Assembly: GCF_963576545.1 (NCBI RefSeq)
Contig: NC_083656.1
Span: forward strand, 8,064,811-8,128,810
Length of the DNA stretch: 64,000 bases
Direction: 5' to 3'
DNA from: Limanda limanda
Taxonomy: Eukaryota > Chordata > Actinopteri > Pleuronectiformes > Pleuronectidae
Every line of letters begins with the position of its first letter. Position 1 is the first letter of the stretch. The notes under the pieces were generated by a model. That model was not told where the DNA came from and ran no database searches. It was given only the letters and a program-made list of their open reading frames with translations. Below, in pieces: positions 15,114 through 64,000 of the stretch. Position numbers and translations under genes: made by a program.

Positions 15114-15175
15114 CTTCTCAGCATGCCGGTAAGGATGCGAGAACTCTTGCCCAGGTTGGCGTCTGTTTCTCGCAG
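15114..15175 (-). CDS. vti1a: vti1a exon: end of SNARE motif
   Basis: The minus strand encodes LRETDANLGKSS followed by RILTGMLR plus two bases of the next Arg, equivalent to residues 174-193 of mammalian Vti1a-beta and identical to it. This is the C-terminal, membrane-proximal part of the SNARE helix. The next exon should supply the IIQNR linker and the single C-terminal transmembrane anchor. The acceptor is a textbook pyrimidine tract ending in CCCCAG; the donor is GTAAGA. The exit phase is 2. If the donor is not used, the junction reads AGG TAA, giving an immediate stop after GMLRR. The following exon was searched for on the minus strand down to position 1 and not found. Very sure of identity. 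Confidence 0.97.
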
Positions 15176-18780: not shown

Positions 18781-18851
18781 TCTTTCTCTGGCTCTCTGGA
18801 TCTTCTCACGGTCGGTGTGCAGGTTGGCAAGGATCTCCTGGCCCACTTGTT
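18781..18851 (-). CDS. vti1a: vti1a exon: centre of SNARE motif (zero layer)
   Basis: The minus strand completes Glu150 and then reads QVGQEILANLHTDREK followed by IQRARER, equivalent to residues 150-173. It covers the middle of the SNARE helix, including the predicted ionic zero layer. The aligned residue there is Asp (codon at 18811-18813) in the DREK context, as in mammalian Vti1a, where yeast Vti1p has Gln. Substitutions from human lie in I/V, M/I, E/A and SH/HT positions, a pattern of conservative drift that argues for a functional gene. The acceptor is CCCCCTGCAG after a pyrimidine tract and the donor is GTGAGT. Entry phase is 1 and exit phase 0. Very sure. Confidence 0.97.
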
Positions 18852-41152: not shown

Positions 41153-42130
41153 TTTAATTTGATCATATAATATCAAATGATTCTACTGAGTCACAAATAG
41201 TATATTAGTAAACAAATCTATCTCTTACCTGAGTTGTTTAACATATAAACCAGTTTAATGGACTTCCTTTGTTTTTGTATATTGCACTGATCTTCTCATT
41301 TTACTGCAGTAAAGTGGTTCCTTGCTATTTTATGGAACAGATGTAACATCCGAGCTTATGGTGTTGCAAAGGTAGCAACCAAAAAAAATCAAAGAAGAAT
41401 AAACACAATAACATTCATTGTACTTGAATCTCATCAACAAAAACTCATCAGTGAAAACCCAGCCCCACGAAAGGTAACTTGAAGAGATTAAACATGGCGA
41501 AGAACAAGATTCGCTTGAGAGGTGACCACTTTCCCAACAGTTTAGGATCAGAGGGCTCTTGGATTTCTGTTCCGCTGTTGACATTTACGATCATTGTACA
41601 ACCAGCAGGCATAGTGGGATGCTCCTCTCCAGTTTAGGATTGCACTGTGGCCACACACGTCTGTCCCGACTGTGGGATTTGGTTTTTCTGAAGGGCTTCA
41701 CTGCAGCTGACACAGAGAGGCAAGGGGAGCTGTTTCTTATGACGGACATTCAAGCACTAACAATACAGTGCAGATTATGTGAAACATGATGAAAGATAAT
41801 GACTTTTTTTTTTTTTAGCTTAGACTGTGACAGAAATGACCTGCATCCCTCTGAAGATCATCTTGACAGATGCACCAAAAATCTCAACTCCTCCATAAGA
41901 AAAGATGCTCAAAGCGCTCAAATCAATTACATCAAAGCCGGAGCTCACATATCGAGACTTGTTAAGTTAACTGTAGTCATATCACAAAGGTAGGGTGCCG
42001 GAGCCATTGCTGTCACTTGACGACGCTTGCGTCTAAATTGGGAGTGAAGGCCTCCCCAGGAGAGATGGGCCAACCTGTCACCGAAGACTGAGGGAGCAGA
42101 CACGCACACACACGCACACACACACGCGCA

Positions 42131-48170
<6,040 letters not shown>

Positions 48171-54025: not shown

Positions 54026-54110
54026 CAGTTTCCACTGCTATCTGGTAGCCGGCCTCCAGTCTCCGCGATGACCTTTCTATCTTCTCTGTGTTGTCCAACA
54101 GATGCGCTCT
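54026..54110 (-). CDS. vti1a: vti1a exon: start of SNARE motif
   Basis: The minus strand encodes 28 codons plus one base. They begin RAHLLDNTEKIERSS and continue RRLEAGYQIAVET, equivalent to residues 122-149 of mammalian Vti1a-beta. Mammalian Vti1a has RL where this protein has KI; otherwise the match is essentially exact. This is the N-terminal half of the Qb-SNARE helix. Vti1a pairs with syntaxin-16/syntaxin-6/VAMP4-type partners at the trans-Golgi network and endosomes. The acceptor is TTGTTGCAG after a T-rich tract. The donor is GTGCGT, with C rather than A at position +4. The phase 1 end leaves a G that joins AA of the next exon to make Glu150. A 35.2-kb intron follows. Very sure of identity and borders. 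Confidence 0.97.
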
Positions 54111-54654
54111 CTGCAACAAATAAGAGAAAAAAATAAATAAAGCCAGCGAAACAAACAAGGAGAAAAAAAAATTGATTGAGAGGGCTGGGAACCATTTCAA
54201 AGAAACACATCAACACTGTCACCTAAACAGACAGACCACATCCACAGCGACAACATAATGCAGCCAGGTTGGCAATAACCTTCATGGATGACAATGTGTT
54301 ATATGCTGATGGAATATCAAGCATATGCATGTTGAGGCTGACAATATCAGATGTGTTGCTGCCTTATCTTGGACATGAAAACAAGAACAACTTTGAGGTG
54401 TGTTGCCTCCTTGTATTGTTTCACAACAGAGCCTTCTGCTGCGCGTGGGGAAGAGTTAAGGCAGGAGGGTGCAAATCAAGATGAAATCACATTTAATTTG
54501 CAGCTTTCGCAGCAAGAGGAAAAATCCTGTTCAGGGGAAAGCTTTCACCTGGAGAAGGGAGTTAAGAGAAAATCAACCGTAACCCCCTCGACTGTAGACA
54601 ATAATGCAACATATAAAGTTAAATAAATAACCAGAATGGCACTCAGTAGAGCGC
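54111..54654. other. Intron upstream of exon 54026-54110
   Basis: Starts with the acceptor TTGTTGCAG and its T-rich tract (A-rich on the plus strand). Otherwise unremarkable up to the inverted-end element. Confidence 0.65.
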
Positions 54655-55010
54655 ATTCCTCCGCCAAGGCCCAACAGTCCCATTAGATTCATTAAAGCTG
54701 CGCTGAAATTCACACACTCATATATATCAGTCTCAGAGTGTTTTATTAAATCAAGAGCCATGAATCGTTCCCCGGGAAAATTGTAAAATATATATTAATA
54801 ACTATCTTGCAATAATAAAGAGAGTGAAAATAATTGATCTGGATCCACACCTAAATTTAATGGGTTCTTCCCTGACCCTTCTACCAAGTTTCTGGGGATA
54901 TGTGTTCAGGTTTTTTTGGGTATAATCTTGCTTACAACCAAACAAACATAGAAATCAAACAACAACCAACGTACAGGGGTGAAAACATAACCTAGTTGGC
55001 AGAGGTGATT
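54655..55010. mobile_element. Degraded non-autonomous element with inverted ends, copy 2
   Basis: A second, diverged copy of the 11584-11956 element, in the same orientation. The left end is ATTCCTCCGCCAAGG and the right end TTGGCAGAGGTGATT. Interior blocks shared with copy 1 include ATATATCAGTC, TTCCCCGGGAAAA, GGGTTCTTCCCTGACCC, ACCAAGTTTC and CAGGGGTGAAAACATAA. It is about 356 bp, non-coding, and sits about 0.55 kb upstream (in transcript order) of the 54026-54110 exon acceptor. Confidence 0.7.
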
Positions 55011-57747
55011 ATTTTTGAAAAACAAAAAAATAATGATGAACGTTGGCTTGAGTCGTCCTGCAGCGGCCTCGGTTTGATTCTGACCCGGAAAATAGTAGCT
55101 TCAAAAAGTAATAATAGTAATAATAAGGACATATCGGAGGTGTGAAATGTCATATAAAAAAATGTAAGCCCAAACAAAACCAGTGAATTCCCTTCCTGCT
55201 TCTTGTTTATCCACATTAGTGGACAAAAACAGTCATTCATGATGTACGAGTTAGCACATCCCCCCGTGGTTTACTCACAGCGATCAACAATTGACAAGCC
55301 TGCCCGCTGAAAGCACAGAGTTCAGAGAGCAGAGGTGTTCAAGAAAAGATGTGTTTCATAAAATATTAAATCAGCAACTTGATCATTTTTTTCAAAGTGG
55401 ATGTTTGTGAGTATCAAGGTGTTAGCTCGGGCTCTAATATCAAGTGTATACATATCAGGTGATAGCGCTTCTTTAGATACCAAGAGAGGGGTGGGGGGGG
55501 GGGGGTTGGTTCTTTTTCTACAGCGAAACAATTCATGTCTGACAAGCAAGGCGAGAACACATCTGATCTGTTGACTGATGGCCTTGGGTTCCATCTCGGG
55601 GCTCTCAAATATAGGAATCCTCCATTATGGGTTTATTTCATTGTGTTCACGTATCCAATTACCTCCCCGTATATTACAAAAACATACAGGCAGTAGCTCT
55701 GGAAAATCATTTAATATTCTATTATCTTTGTAAACACTGAACGGGTCAGGTCAGGTCAGTGTTCTCACACCTAAATAAAAATGTAAAAAGAGACTTATTT
55801 TTATTAGAAAATGCCACGTTTGTTCAAAAGCCTAAATTCACACAAATATATGTTGATCTATACCTGACAATTTGTATTGTTAGATGTAATGTACGCTTTA
55901 TTATCCAGATTTCAGTTTTCAGGAATATGTTGAGTCTTCTTCACACATGTAGTCAGTGATTTGGTTACTTGACAATGTTTTCCTGTTTGGTTTAAACATA
56001 ATTCTTTCCACTGTCACCATCAGGGGACCCGGAGCTTCATCTCAACTAACAGCTACAGTTAAACTCAATTTGTCACTGAGTAGTGGAAACCGTTTCACTG
56101 AGGAAACCAGCAGGGAATACTGACTTAAATCATTTTTTCAACGCTATATTTTTCATGACACTGCACAAATGAAGCTCGCCAACTATAGAAATTTTTTCCC
56201 CATTAAGATTATTTATGTTTTGGACATTAATGTTAGATTTTCTTTTAACAGAAAGCGTCACTTACCCATGACCTGCAACTGACGACTCTCAAATGCCATT
56301 GATCTCAAACCAGTTATTCTGACCTTATATGATTTACCATAATTTCACAGATCTAATAAACTCAGCCTCTTATTACAGGATTCCTGCGCACTGTATAACA
56401 AGTGAGTTAATCATTAAGGGCCTGTTTGATCTTCTTTGATATTTCAAGTAGTGCCTGGATATGAAACTTTACATTAAAGTCCTTTCATTACCTCCACCGA
56501 GGAAATGGTTAATTTACCCCCTGTCCTTTTGTTCTTGGTTGGTTTATTTGAAGGGGACTATAGGGCCTTAAATAGGTGGCTGGTTAAAATTACCTTTCAA
56601 CAAAAGACTGTGTAAACTCAATAACATCTGTTGTCAATCTATGTAACACACACGCATAGATTCAAACAAACCTACACAGCCCCATATTGTCCAATGTAGT
56701 GACTTCATTTGCGAGTTCAAACTGAAATCCAGCTTTTCATTAAATCCATACTGCCTTCAGAGGAGAGGATCACCAACCCCACATGCAAGACTTAAATGTT
56801 TACTCAAATGTTGTTGGTTTTGATGGCCGTTCTAATACGTTATGTTAAGAAGCCGATCAGATGCAACACATGTGACACTCAAAAAAACAACCCGATGAAT
56901 GGCAGCCGCCTCTTTGACAAGGGGTGCGTGCCCATCAAATGAGCGAGGGGGACAGGGGGAGAAGCAAAAATCTCCAGTTTTTGTCGGGGCTGTCAAAACA
57001 TGTAGCAGCTAATCACTCAGAGGAAATGAAAAATGTGGAGAAAAAGAAGGGAAGTCAATGACACGCTTTTCAAAGTTTGACAATAAGAGGGATGGGATGG
57101 GAGCAGGGAGGAGGAAAAACTCCCTCTGAACTCTCTCCTCTCCCCTCGCTTCCTCTTTCTTCGCGCCGCTGACAGATGTCATTTAAAAATTGCAGAGATG
57201 CTTTTTAATAGTTAAAGGGAGGGCAGGGGGATGATGGAGGGATATGGGTGGCAAAGTGGGGCTGCTCGTGAGAGAAAAAAAGATGAGGGGATGGCGAGCC
57301 GGGGCACGGGATGCAAGGTGTGGCGTGTTTTGACTGTGCTGGGGTGTGGCAGAGGGCGTTTGGGGAGGGGCTACACGGGCGTGGATGTGGAGACGGTGGC
57401 GGCGTGCACGTGGGAGAAAAATGGATACCAGGCTTGGTCTATAATGAGCCCCTATGGATCAGCTGTGATGGGGGGGGGGGCACGTATTGACATGCAACGC
57501 TTAAGCTAATACACCTAGACCATGGCTGCAGTGCCTGTGTGTGCCTGGGAGCATGAGGCAGCCGGGGATACTGACAGAGTAGCGCACTCCCCGGGTTCTT
57601 CAAAGAGCTCAAGTGATTAGTATGTTATCATTACCATTCGAAACGTGATTTTCCTATTCCCTCTCGGCAAAGGTGACACGTCTTGGGGAGACGGCCGGCA
57701 GACTCACTGCGATGGAAAGCCACTTCAAAGCTTTCTCCTCCTGAATT

Positions 57748-57776
57748 TCTCTCTCTCCCTCTCTCCCTCTCTCTCG
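57748..57776. repeat. CT-rich repeat
   Basis: CTCTCTCCCTCTCTCCCTCT-type imperfect array. Confidence 0.9.
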
Positions 57777-57821
57777 TTCTGTCTTCTTTTAGGGCCGGGG
57801 GGAGGGAAGGGTGTGTGGGTG

Positions 57822-57901
57822 GGTGTGTGTGTGTGTGCGTGTAGGGCGTTCGGGGGTGGTGGCAGTGGTGGTGTATTTATATATATGTGTGTGTGTGTGT
57901 G
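57822..57901. repeat. Two GT arrays around a G-rich spacer
   Basis: GT run at 57822-57842, a spacer with GGGGGTGGTGGCAGTGGTGG, then TATATATA and a second GT run at 57875-57901. Confidence 0.93.
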
Positions 57902-60900
57902 ATCATTAGAATAATGCGCCCCGAGTTTGACGGTGACAGAACCTGAAGGAAAGGGTGAGAGTTCAGCCGCTAAGGATCCAGTAATGGCACACTGTGATGG
58001 ACCCAATAATGAAACAATCCAGCCAGGAACACAGGATGACACAATGAAAAGGAACATGGTACAATTAAAACTAAACATCCCGCCATGCGTATAGTCACAG
58101 TCGAGGCTGATATAGAGATTATGCCCACAAACTTAATCTAAAGTGAGGAGCCTTAACTCTCCAGGAAAAAGCAATTTTGCTCCGATACACGAATGTCACA
58201 CAACGACCAAATAAAAAAAAAGGTGGATGTGTAGAAATGTTGAGCAAAGAAGCTTTTTCTGCAGTTAGCAAGCAAAATGCCAGACAAGTCCGTGTCAGCA
58301 TTTTTAATCGAGGGGAATGCAAAGTGGTTGGCTTTCCCCGACTGTGCTACAACGTCCCATATCAAGGGTTGACCCCTGTGGTTCTGGTATACGTCACCAC
58401 TGGGAGACCTGCAGGATGAGACACACCAACACCTTTTCAAGCTCAAATACAGGCTTCGCATTAAGACCTGCTATTTATCGACTGGAAAAAACAACAACTA
58501 AGGATGCCATTAAAAAACATATCAGAGTGTCTCATGGAGCCTTTTAGCAAAAGATTTAAACACAATGTATAATAAATATTGTGCATCTGTGAATGCACTC
58601 GTGGATCCCCCCCACCACCACAACCACTTCTCCCTATACATGTCTGCCGTTTCATCTGACACCTACATTTTGAACAAAGATCTTCTTAGGAACCACGAAA
58701 ATGGTGTTTTTTTGTTGTGCTTTTTTGCGTCAAGAAACACTCTTCAGTTGTGAGTTATTAACAGGGAGCCCCAGAACAATGCAGCTGTAGCTCAAACGAA
58801 ATCTCTCCCCTCTTCTTTCGCTCTCCTGCCTTTTTTCAATATCAAACACAGACGGTTACTATCACCACTTTCCAAAGTTCAGATGATTTCCTTATTATTT
58901 CAATAAGGGTGGGGGAGAGTCAAAGTGAATAATGATGACAGCTGTGATTCAGACTGACTGTGTGATCTTCTGTGCCGTTTGTTTGGGACTTGTAAGACGA
59001 GGAATTACAAGTGTCAAACAGCTGTGAATATGGGTGCTAAATATTTAAACATGTTTTTCAGCAGAAGATAAAAAAAAAGTATAGTTTTTTTTAAAAGCAA
59101 GGCTTAAGTGTGTATAAGCTGTGCCAGCCTTTGATTCGAATGCAGGAAGAGCAGAAGGGTAAAAGACTGCGGTGGAGGAGTGCAATGGCGAAGAGGGTGT
59201 AAAAAAAAAAATCCCCCTAGAAATCCAGCCCGATTACACAGATCGGACCACTCGTAAAGGGGGGGGGGAAACAGGTGAGGTAACTCGTGATGTCTTCTGA
59301 CCCTCAGGCTAAGAGGAAATGCCCCAAAAATAGAGGGGAAGAAAAGGGGGAAACAACGGTGCAGCTAAATAAAAGAAAAAAGCACGATAACATGGCACCT
59401 GGGCCAGTTGGCGTTTTGAATTATGAATAGGTGTGAACGGTGAAGCTCTGATAACAATTGAATCACTCGGCTTCAGCAGATGCTCCTTTGAACATAGAGT
59501 CACTCAGAGGCACGTTTAACAACAAGTTCAGCCAAGGACAAGAATATAAGGTGATGAGATAGAAACTGAAAAAAATCGTCCTCAATAGAGGAAAAAACTA
59601 AATTTAAATCATCATTTGCACGAGTAATAATCAAATATACCAATATAACAACTACTGAGTGTTCAATAATGTAATAAATATACATTAGCAGAAATCCACC
59701 TAACAGTTAAAGATTCATGACTTTAATAAAAAAACTATGATATTCTTAACAGTTCAACAACAAATGTTTAAAACCAAAAAGTCAACATACATATTCAAAA
59801 GATTACATGTGTTTTAAAGTGCACTTTACATATCAGTACCTTACCTTATATTTTACCCATTTGTATTGTTGTTTTGCACCATCAACCTTTTCATATGACT
59901 TCATGATAAGTATAAGAAATTGTGATGGCCGTCCAAAAATACAATTACTACAATGAGCTTCTTCAAATGACAGAGTAAATGAATTTGTACAATCAAAGTG
60001 AAGAATACAAAAACAACTGTTGCTAATGGAGCGAAAAGCAGGAAATATACTGTATATACAAACTCACAGTACTTGCATAGTAAAACAGTCGTTATTGCCA
60101 ATTGGCTAGAGGTTTTAATGTTGATATTAACTTAGCGTTATGGTAGTATTTTGTGTTTGGTTAGCTCATGTGCTAAGGAGAAAGCTAACTGTAAAGCTCA
60201 CTAAGCTGGGATGTGTATGGTGGCAAACAGAATCAAACATTTAATGTGTTACTTGTTCTTAAATCAAAACGACTCACAACAGCTTTAGGAATTTCTTTAA
60301 AAAAATATGTTTCTCTACATTTTTGATTCCCCTTTTTCATTAAATTGCACATGTGTGTTACGTTGCACACTGTATAGTGCGACCAATACAATATGTCAAG
60401 TTTGGCAATCGTGATGATGTTTTACGCAATGCAAAAGTGACAACACAACAGAAACAACACTACAGTCTTGCATATATCCCAAAGAATAGTTTCTCCCGGG
60501 TCCCTGCAGAGTATATCTCTGCTACTAGTTGCAGTCCACCTTAAAAACAATAAATATTTAAAGAGAAGCAACATATTTAGCCCCATTGAAGGGTGAGTCA
60601 ATGGTGCAGCAGCCATTCCCTCTTGAAACGAAGATGTTGAACTGCGTTGGTCCCAATAATCGAAGCTGCTCTAAGCCCTGCTTCGTTCCACAATATTAGT
60701 CTTCAAACAGGCCTATCGGAAATAATATCTTATCTTTACTTTCGGATATTTGAGGTAAGGGAACCTGGAGAAACTGGTCTTCAGTGAATTCATTATCTCC
60801 GGCTTGGCCTTTAAGCTGTTCAATCAGACATGTAAAATAGTGTACAAATGAGCTGATTTTCATTTTCTACGGGGAGAGAGAAGGGCAAATGGAAATTTCA

Positions 60901-60945
60901 GTGGGAAAGCATAATTTAAATTGTTAGGAGCAGAGAAGCACTTAC

Positions 60946-60966
60946 CTCTTCGCGTAACTTTATCAA
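60946..60966 (-). CDS. vti1a: vti1a 21-nt neuronal microexon (Vti1a-beta insert)
   Basis: Read on the minus strand this 21-nt exon encodes LIKLREE, identical to the seven-residue insert that distinguishes brain Vti1a-beta from the general form (residues 115-121 of the mammalian 224-residue protein). It is bounded by a TGATGCAG acceptor and a strong GTAAGT donor, and both borders are phase 0, so inclusion or skipping keeps the frame. The insert sits just before the SNARE motif, between the Habc region and the helix that enters the SNARE bundle. The next exon, at 54026-54110, begins with RAHLLDN, exactly as in mammals. Just upstream in the transcript are CU-rich runs and three UGC triplets, the pattern of neuronal microexons. 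Identity is very secure; brain-restricted use in this fish is inferred from the mammalian isoform. Confidence 0.95.
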
Positions 60967-61030
60967 CTGCATCACGAGAGCAAAAGCAAGAAGAGGGAAG
61001 GATGGAGAGAGAGAGAGTGAAGAAGAGATG
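60967..61030 (-). promoter_or_regulatory. Candidate splicing control region upstream of the microexon
   Basis: In transcript orientation this segment runs from a CUCUUCUUC and CUCUCUCUCU stretch (complement of the GA run at 61004-61017) into a second pyrimidine tract. UGC triplets follow at 60986-60988, 60980-60982 and 60969-60971, all within about 22 nt of the splice acceptor. CUCUCU/UCUU runs are known binding motifs of the repressor PTBP1. UGC between the tract and the AG is the known signature of SRRM4 (nSR100)-dependent neuronal microexons. The motifs are seen directly; their use is inferred. Confidence 0.55.
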
Positions 61031-64000
61031 TTTAAAAAGAAGATCAGTTATGTGGCAGGGTACAAAATTAACCTTGACGATTTATCTGTTTGCATGTTTA
61101 GCATTTTGAAATCACAAGACAAACACATTAAACGGAGCTAAACACGCCGCTCGCGCCGACTTTTTTGAACAAACAAAGATCAAGTCCTGGCGCTGTCACA
61201 TTAAACACGGAGGGGGAATGGATCGCTCCACTCGCAATATCAACTAAGATTATCAAGGAAGTCACATCACAGAAGTTGATATAGCAGGAGCAGAGAAAGA
61301 AAATGAGTCAAATATAGTGAGCACAGGTACAGTGTGTTTAAAAGATTTTGTATCTGTCGTTTTTTATTTTGCTGAATTCTCTGGAAGGAAAGATGGAAAG
61401 AAGAACGTGCCCAGTGGAGGAGAGGTGAAGAAATGCTGAGCCACTCCATTCCTGCCACTGTTTTATCAGTGCTGATGTCAATGTTTCCCTATGTGCATCT
61501 CGTGAAGGTGTTTGCTGTTCACACTGTGCAAGGAGAGTCATGTGAGGCTACCTTACATACAGTGCACTTTACAGCCACAGATCATGAAAAATGGATCTTG
61601 GCACAGCTATACATTTTTCATTAAACAGAATAGCATATTTAAAGTGGAGTAAATAAGAAATGTTATTCCTATTCCCAGTCCTGGGAAAATCGTGAATCTC
61701 TAATAATGAATTACACATTTGAAGGAGGGCAATAATTTGACTTGCTATTAATTATGACTGATTACAATTAAAAAGGTTGTTTCTATTGGCCTGTTATTAA
61801 CTGGGGGCTGTGGAGGAGGAGGAGAACGATGAGGGTTATTGAGGGAATTCAACACATTGGCCTGAAAAGGGGGAAGAGGAACTTTCTCAATATTCAAGCC
61901 TTTTAAAGGGGAGTTTTGTTTTTAATATACATATTTCTTGGCTAACATTAAAAGGTTAACAGATCCAAAGGGAGGCTTGGGACTACTTTGACTTTTGCCT
62001 GTTTAGTCCGGAATAATTTTATAATATAATATAAGATGAGTGGTCTGGGATCTTGAATCGCAAACTTGATTTCTAACTTTGAGGTTTAAAAAAAACGCTG
62101 GGAGAGTGTCCAAAAAATTATCTTTAGGTTAAAATTATTAAAAGCTCCTTCTACATGCGATAACGGGAATAAATGCAGAATTTACATTTAACAATTGCAT
62201 TTATTTTATATTGAAATCCTAAACAAAATAAAAAAACAATACTGTACTGCATCGTGTCATCTATTTATATTACACCAGTAGTAAACGCACTCAAAGAAAC
62301 GTGTCATATAATAAACAGAGTCAAGATAAAACTACGCTGCTAAAAAAAACACAAAAAAATATCTACAATCTTGCACAGATTTCTCCTTGTAATTTTAGAA
62401 GCATCTCAAAAATAGTTCCTGCATCATTTGTGTTTTATTTTATCCCAATTATAAAATACATCTATGACAGCTCTAGTGTTTTATTGCAAATAAAAAAGTT
62501 TAATATGCCAATATCAGTAACGTGGGAAGTAAACAAGTATATCTGTTGTTTTTCTCGAGAGCTCATACCCTTGGAAATGTCGGCAGTAACAAGACGCACT
62601 TTAGAGTGGAATCTGTCTTTTCTAACTTAAGTAACAGCTCCCCACTAGGAATGCATTATTGAACAGGCCAAAGTTTAAAACTACACCGTGAATGTGGTTA
62701 TTTGGGGCTTGAACAAACCCAGCAGATCCTGCGATCCCTCACCCCGGCTCTGCCATCAGTCAATGGATACCAAACAAAACTTGTTCTAGCTCATCTGTGC
62801 CGCTTGAGTGACTGCAAGTCCTCGAGGAGGATTTGTTAAAACTATATGAGGGGCATGTTGAGCCGTTTCTCGTTTCTTCCTGCCTAGCTTATTTTTTCTT
62901 TGGCAGCCATTCTTCAGTGATGCTCGCGTCGTTCAAGAGACACAGAGCAGCAAATACCGAATATTGTAAATCTCGTAATTACTCCTGCACGAGCGCCTTT
63001 CCCTGTGTTTTTGTGATGCCAGCCAGTATTCAAAATTGCACTGCTGCAATTTTTCTGTTATGATAATCAGCATTTTTTCTTTTTTTTTTCAAACAAAAGA
63101 TTTTTTTTTTATCCAATACGGAATTCGATACAAGTGGTAATCTGCTTCCTTTGTAGCCTCTAAAATCTGGTCCATGCCGGCTCAAACCAGCACAATCTCT
63201 TGTGGCCAAACCTTCTGCTGCGACTGAAATCGAAACTATTCCGTATAGTGTTCGTGTGTGAAAAATGTGTGTGCATTCCCTGCTTTGTGTGTGGCGGTGT
63301 GTGTGTGTGTGTGTGTGCCATCGAAGTGTTTGTGCGTGTACTGCATGCAGAGGAAACAGAAAGGGGGAAAAAATGTGCAATGGCAGCCTACCACATTATT
63401 AAAAAAACGAGTTGATAGTGCCAATTCAGTCTCTGTCCGTGCACAGATAACGAATAAATGCCGAACTCTATTAAATCGTCCTTTAGCCATTATCGCAGGG
63501 CCAACACGCCATTTTCAGAACTTATGACGGTTCCCTATTTACTTAGCTATAAATCCTTGCCATGTAACCAACAGATTTGTGACTGGTAATGATCTGCTCA
63601 GCCAGGGCTATATGAAATGATCCTGACCTCTTTCAGATCGTCAGGAATTAAATTGACCGATTTGCCCCGGCCCCCACCATCTTTTCCCCTCTCCTATCAC
63701 CGTGGTCTCGTTAGATAAAAAAAAAAAACTGAAGTTCCGAGTACTCCACTCACAGCCAGACCAAGACGAGTATTATCTCCACAAGTTTTAAAATGAAAAT
63801 GAGGTAAATACGGCACCTTGGGAAAAAAGAGGGGAATATATATCATCTATTTACTTTGCTTTTGCCCCCAGCATGAACTCTTTCTGTGCATGTGTGTGTT
63901 TGTGTTTAAAACATAAAATTATTATTTTCAAGTTTCATACTCTTATTGCTGTGTTCCAATGTAGATGATTTATAGCACACGTCTCAAACATATTTGAGTA
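61031..64000. other. Intron upstream of the microexon
   Basis: No exon ending in the expected GNSSENQ-type sequence was found, so the preceding vti1a exon is beyond 64000. The stretch 61640-61860 is unique and rich in TAAT/ATTA sites (GCTATTAATTATGACTGATT), a candidate conserved element. The rest is AT-rich with runs of T near 63070-63115. Confidence 0.55.
63297..63318. repeat. (GT)~11 microsatellite
   Basis: Short pure GT run in the intron upstream of the microexon. Confidence 0.93.

What the first reader, a model, noticed from the sequence alone, without database searches (positions are those of the whole stretch)
60946..60966. Neuronal 7-residue microexon of Vti1a preserved in a fish
The 21-nt exon encodes LIKLREE, exactly the brain Vti1a-beta insert of mammals. 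It has phase 0 borders and consensus splice sites. Perfect identity of an optional seven-residue insert between fish and mammals implies strong selection on a neuronal SNARE variant. It is too short for ordinary gene prediction and would be easily missed.
Basis: partly seen in the sequence, partly recalled or inferred. Interest (0 to 1): 0.8.

Follow-up and report, generated by a model that had tools for sequence, protein, structure and literature searches.

The report
Known Vti1a neuronal microexon in flatfish
The 21-base stretch is a real, well-conserved optional exon of the vesicle-fusion gene vti1a in what looks like a flatfish, but this brain-specific exon is already known in mammals and has already been deleted in zebrafish, so it is an ordinary (if neat) example rather than a discovery.

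Summary
On the minus strand, 60966-60946 reads TTGATAAAGTTACGCGAAGAG (LIKLREE), with AG before it, GTAAGT after it and phase 0 borders. Three further vti1a exons follow collinearly at 54110-54026, 18851-18781 and 15175-15114. The spliced translation of all four (79 complete codons) is found unchanged in Vti1a of Atlantic halibut and European flounder, and in no other of 231 Vti1a proteins held. The source is therefore very probably a right-eyed flatfish, and this is the Vti1a-beta microexon. Its flank has the layout of Srrm3/4-controlled microexons: a UC-rich tract and three UGC within 22 nt of the acceptor (layout from PMC12626420). The exon is not easily missed: 111 of 120 fish proteins listed by one search carry exactly LIKLREE, 100 of them from an NCBI source. 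It is not new: PMC12626420 credits its recognition to Antonin et al. 2000, and two zebrafish studies deleted it, with mild effects. AlphaFold2 models of other fishes' isoforms suggest that the insert lengthens the SNARE helix by one heptad; this is inference. Inclusion in this species was not testable.

The parts
60946..60966 (-). vti1a 21-nt microexon, LIKLREE, phase 0/0
   Evidence: identical insert in 111 of 120 fish Vti1a proteins
60967..61026 (-). 3' splice site region: UC-rich tract, UGC at -22, -16 and -5, acceptor AG (candidate SRRM3/4 enhancer)
   Evidence: 7 of 594 pyrimidine-rich AGs in the window have at least 3 TGC in 30 nt
60940..60945 (-). 5' splice site GTAAGT
54026..54110 (-). 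next vti1a exon (RAHLLDNTEKIERSSRRLEAGYQIAVET + 1 nt), 85 nt, donor GTGCGT
18781..18851 (-). vti1a exon (2 nt + QVGQEILANLHTDREKIQRARER), 71 nt, donor GTGAGT
15114..15175 (-). vti1a exon (LRETDANLGKSSRILTGMLR + 2 nt), 62 nt, donor GTAAGA

Best explanation
This is the alternatively spliced neuronal microexon of vti1a (the Vti1a-beta exon) in a teleost, very probably a right-eyed flatfish. In most cells the exon would be skipped, so that the upstream exon joins directly to the exon at 54110 (RAHLL...). In neurons Srrm3/Srrm4, acting through the UGC motifs in front of the acceptor, would bring it in (reported for zebrafish vti1a as a regulated microexon, inferred here). The added LIKLREE lies in the linker between the N-terminal three-helix domain and the Qb-SNARE motif. 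It probably lengthens the SNARE helix N-terminally by exactly one heptad (two turns), so the zipper register is kept while the N-terminal domain is set further from the zipper. That would tune assembly or partner choice on neuronal vesicles. Shown: sequence, exon structure, orthology. Inferred from zebrafish papers: inclusion and Srrm3/4 control. Inferred from predicted models of other species: the heptad mechanism. The confidence given is for the identity; I put the heptad mechanism at about 0.3.
For: Exon sequence, splice sites and phase. Collinear downstream vti1a exons. The 79 complete codons of microexon plus three exons occur unchanged in halibut P0138 and flounder P0153 (names). Pairs of isoforms with and without the insert are annotated in one species, for example Carassius auratus P0206/P0226 and Xyrauchen P0213/P0228 (names, insert state). 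UC tract plus three UGC before the acceptor is the layout that PMC12626420 calls canonical for Srrm4 targets. [quoted passage not shown] In AlphaFold2 models the insert (115-121) lies inside helix 111-197; without it the SNARE helix starts at 112.
Against: No RNA data for this species. The upstream exon is outside the window. UGC before an acceptor is not specific: 2 of the 3 downstream exons also have one at -5, though none has more. Model confidence is low in the linker (mean pLDDT 55 for residues 101-110 and 68 for 111-120; pTM 0.43), and the modelled proteins are from other fishes. AlphaFold2 tends to extend helices (recalled).
Confidence: 0.93

Rival explanations
1. The 21-nt stretch is a real vti1a exon but is included in most tissues of this fish, so it is not a neuron-specific switch.
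For: No RNA-seq was available. The donor GTAAGT fits the consensus. Many NCBI entries take the insert-containing form as isoform X1.
Against: Zebrafish vti1a is in the set picked for sharp neural inclusion and srrm3/4 dependence (PMC12626424), and the UGC/UC layout is present here. Insert-free isoforms are also listed for fishes (5 of 120).
Confidence: 0.05
2. A chance 21-nt match in a large intron, not an exon.
For: One other AG-21nt-GTRAG stretch lies in the same scanned stretch (55279-55299, ACQLLIA), so splice-site-like framing alone is not rare.
Against: LIKLREE is at the orthologous position, in the right order, strand and phase, and halibut and flounder carry the identical spliced sequence.
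Confidence: 0.01
3. It is the neuronal microexon, but the insert acts as a short linear docking motif (for a tether, adaptor or SM protein) rather than as a helix spacer. This rivals the mechanism, not the identity.
For: Microexons often modulate protein-protein interactions (statement in PMC12626424). The insert is charged and highly conserved.
Against: The model places it inside a helix with both leucines continuing the hydrophobic column, but a docking helix could look the same. Nothing tested separates the two.
Confidence: 0.35

Closest known systems
Vti1a-beta, brain splice variant of mammalian Vti1a (Antonin et al. 2000; paper not held, seen only as cited in PMC12626420 and PMC9197314)
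   Same: Identical seven residues at the same junction (SENQ|LIKLREE|RAHLL) in mammalian proteins returned by the search, e.g. P0001, P0015. A human retina peptide NELLGDDGNSSENQLIK spans the junction (PMC11450717); that peptide at first failed the authors' manual validation and was kept because an earlier study had seen it.
   Different: Species only; nothing in the window differs in kind.
Zebrafish vti1a microexon, VastDB EX0084665 (PMC12626424); a vti1a microexon was also deleted in PMC12626420
   Same: Same gene and same class of exon in another teleost. Cyprinid relatives in the search (Megalobrama P0150, Carassius P0206) carry LIKLREE.
   Different: The zebrafish exon has RNA and deletion data. 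The zebrafish letters themselves were not seen in any call.
SRRM3/4 (nSR100) neuronal microexon programme
   Same: 21 nt, in frame, UC tract and UGC motifs upstream, near-fixed peptide across bony vertebrates.
   Different: Regulation not shown for this species.

Membership tests
Vti1a (Qb-SNARE) | Coding exons orthologous to Vti1a | tested here: met
   79 of 79 complete codons (microexon plus three exons) unchanged in halibut and flounder Vti1a, which carry PF05008 and PF12352
Vti1a (Qb-SNARE) | Complete gene with N-terminal domain and transmembrane tail | tested here: inconclusive
   N-terminal and tail exons not found in the window, which holds only the middle of the gene
Neuronal microexon (SRRM3/4 class) | 3-27 nt, in frame | tested here: met
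   21 nt, phase 0/0; size range from PMC12626424
Neuronal microexon (SRRM3/4 class) | UGC plus UC-rich tract directly upstream | tested here: met
   UGC at -22, -16, -5 and a UC tract; layout from PMC12626420
Neuronal microexon (SRRM3/4 class) | Conserved peptide across vertebrates | tested here: met
   bony vertebrates only: of 231 proteins 151 exact, 8 with one residue changed, 69 without the insert, 3 odd; of the 120 fish proteins 111, 1, 5, 3
Neuronal microexon (SRRM3/4 class) | Neural-biased inclusion in this species | not testable with these tools
   no RNA-seq available
Neuronal microexon (SRRM3/4 class) | Loss of inclusion without SRRM3/4 | not testable with these tools
   a selection criterion of the zebrafish set that includes vti1a (PMC12626424)

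The most novel reading that the evidence does not exclude
The length of the microexon, exactly one heptad, is itself the conserved property. The neuronal isoform is a one-heptad helix extension of the Qb-SNARE that keeps the hydrophobic column continuous (L118, L125, L/I132, L139 ...). It would thereby move the N-terminal domain two helical turns away from the zipper in neurons without touching the SNARE core. Neither of the two solved Vti1 chains found by sequence contains it in the matched part; in 2nps_C (Vti1a) the match begins at the first residue after the microexon.
Probability: 0.3. Interest if true: 0.4.

Novelty: already known. Interest (0 to 1): 0.13.

Why it matters
It confirms that the Vti1a-beta switch keeps both its peptide and a recognisable Srrm4-type acceptor in another teleost lineage. 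That helps annotation and comparative splicing work but adds no new kind of biology. [quoted passage not shown]

Tried and rejected
Chance match: rejected by position, phase and orthology. An exon overlooked by annotation: rejected. Rfam at gathering threshold: 0 matches in the window. Full-text search for the letters LIKLREE: 0 papers. Antonin et al. 2000 (PMC6772562): not held, so its content is known only through citing passages. Origin of the exon outside bony vertebrates was not resolved: both protein searches list only the best 120 hits (of 957 and 926), the named ones all bony vertebrates, and no jawless-fish or invertebrate DNA was looked at. No structure-library search was run, because the fold is known.

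Errors of mine, mended: the query carried one wrong residue (V, read through a donor site, instead of L). In some searches the exon offsets and the joined peptide were set by eye; one search recomputed the exons from the DNA, and the coordinates reported are those. The per-column count gave 0 invariant insert columns, because a few aberrant entries (LFLCLLQ and others) break every column; the window-based count replaces it. The insert tallies missed entries with RSHLL or QAHLL after the insert; one search gives the recount used here.

Full report
What is there. The minus strand at 60966-60946 reads TTGATAAAGTTACGCGAAGAG, LIKLREE, between ...gctctcgtgatgcag and gtaagtgcttct. A degenerate LIKLREE pattern, searched with up to one mismatch, matches the 64-kb window once, with none; 100 dinucleotide shuffles average 0.01 matches. 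The exon is 21 nt and phase 0 at both ends. The framing alone would not be convincing: of the 21-nt stretches on the minus strand of 54111-64000 with AG before and GTRAG after, there are 2, this one and 55279-55299 (ACQLLIA). The coding content and position decide it.

The gene. The introns between the four exons are 6835, 35174 and 3605 nt. Joined, the four exons give 79 complete codons without a stop, and this 79-residue peptide occurs unchanged in Hippoglossus hippoglossus P0138 and Platichthys flesus P0153, and in none of the other 229 Vti1a proteins held (names). The EKIERS motif is likewise limited to these two. The source is therefore most likely a right-eyed flatfish, family Pleuronectidae (inference; family placement recalled). 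The upstream exons and the transmembrane tail exon were not found and presumably lie outside the window.

Conservation. Two protein searches returned 957 and 926 hits, of which the best 120 each were listed, giving 231 distinct proteins. Of these 231, 151 have exactly LIKLREE at the junction, 8 have a single-residue variant (5 frogs, 2 sturgeon entries, 1 goby), 69 lack the insert, and 3 have other sequence there (Oncorhynchus LMKLSEE, Nothobranchius LFLCLLQ, a Sinocyclocheilus entry). Of the 120 fish proteins listed (one of them, P0229, without an organism name), 111 are exact, 1 is a single-residue variant, 5 lack the insert and 3 are odd; 100 of the 111 have an NCBI source. Five further fish of the first list are outside that set: P0038, P0071 and P0097 exact, P0077 and P0078 LIKLRDE. 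In the 108 fish proteins of 224 aa the insert is exact in 97%. Mean exact 7-mer conservation is 69% in the N-terminal part, 79% in the SNARE part and 48% in the tail; 27 of 218 windows (the insert's own included) are at least as conserved as the insert. It is highly conserved but not exceptional within this protein. Both lists were drawn with queries that contain the insert, which favours entries with it.

Regulation. The 60 nt before the acceptor form a UC-rich tract with UGC at -22, -16 and -5. Three or more TGC within 30 nt precede 65 of 8243 AGs in the window (both strands) and 7 of 594 pyrimidine-rich ones (this exon is itself in those counts). Of the three downstream exons, two have a single UGC at -5 and one has none, so the UGC at -5 is not informative by itself. 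PMC12626420 (passages) describes UGC plus a UC repeat or similar tract directly upstream as the canonical layout in zebrafish, indicating Srrm4 control; the review PMC10551640 (passages) gives the mechanism. PMC12626424 (passages and sections 5 and 6; [quoted passage not shown]

What it does. PMC12626424 reports social-behaviour differences, called relatively minor, after deletion of the vti1a microexon. [quoted passage not shown] 2000) but its specific importance largely ignored. PMC13281805 (passages) examined a vti1a microexon line for sleep, within a set most of which had mild or no phenotype. [quoted passage not shown] AlphaFold2 models of a fish protein with the insert (P0120, alignment of 17) and one without (P0221, alignment of 11) show the SNARE helix beginning at residues 111 and 112 respectively, so the seven residues are added inside the helix. 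Read as heptads from the insert, position 4 is L, L, I, L, A, G, L, I, L, L, L. The insert therefore continues the column and keeps the register. By my recall of SNARE layers, layer -7 is about L139, so the insert lies outside the core, in the linker. Mean pLDDT there is 55 to 68 and pTM is 0.43 to 0.44; this is a hypothesis. The two solved Vti1 chains found (2nps_C, 1gl2_C) do not include the insert in their matched parts.

Verdict. The claims of easy oversight and, by implication, of novelty are not. Already known, low interest. The searches behind 'already known' were made, with the passages read; a search for the letters of the insert found no paper.

Noticed in passing
window 54026-54110: Ile in EKIERS is shared only with halibut P0138 and flounder P0153 among 231 Vti1a proteins, pointing to a right-eyed flatfish as the source.
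   Followed up: yes
window 55279-55299 (minus): A second AG-21nt-GTGAGT stretch (ACQLLIA) in the intron after the microexon; probably chance, no relative was searched for.
   Followed up: no
window 42100-42276: Long (AC)n microsatellite of about 88 copies inside the 35-kb intron.
   Followed up: no
P0216 (Oncorhynchus) and P0219 (Nothobranchius): Vti1a entries with altered inserts (LMKLSEE, LFLCLLQ): perhaps a relaxed salmonid duplicate and a wrong splice-site choice in annotation.
   Followed up: no
frog, sturgeon and goby Vti1a proteins (P0025, P0031, P0045, P0050, P0086; P0077, P0078; P0198): Single-residue changes of the insert (LVKLREE, LLKLREE, MIKLREE, LIKLQEE, LIKLRDE, VIKLREE), so the peptide is not absolutely fixed.
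   Followed up: partly
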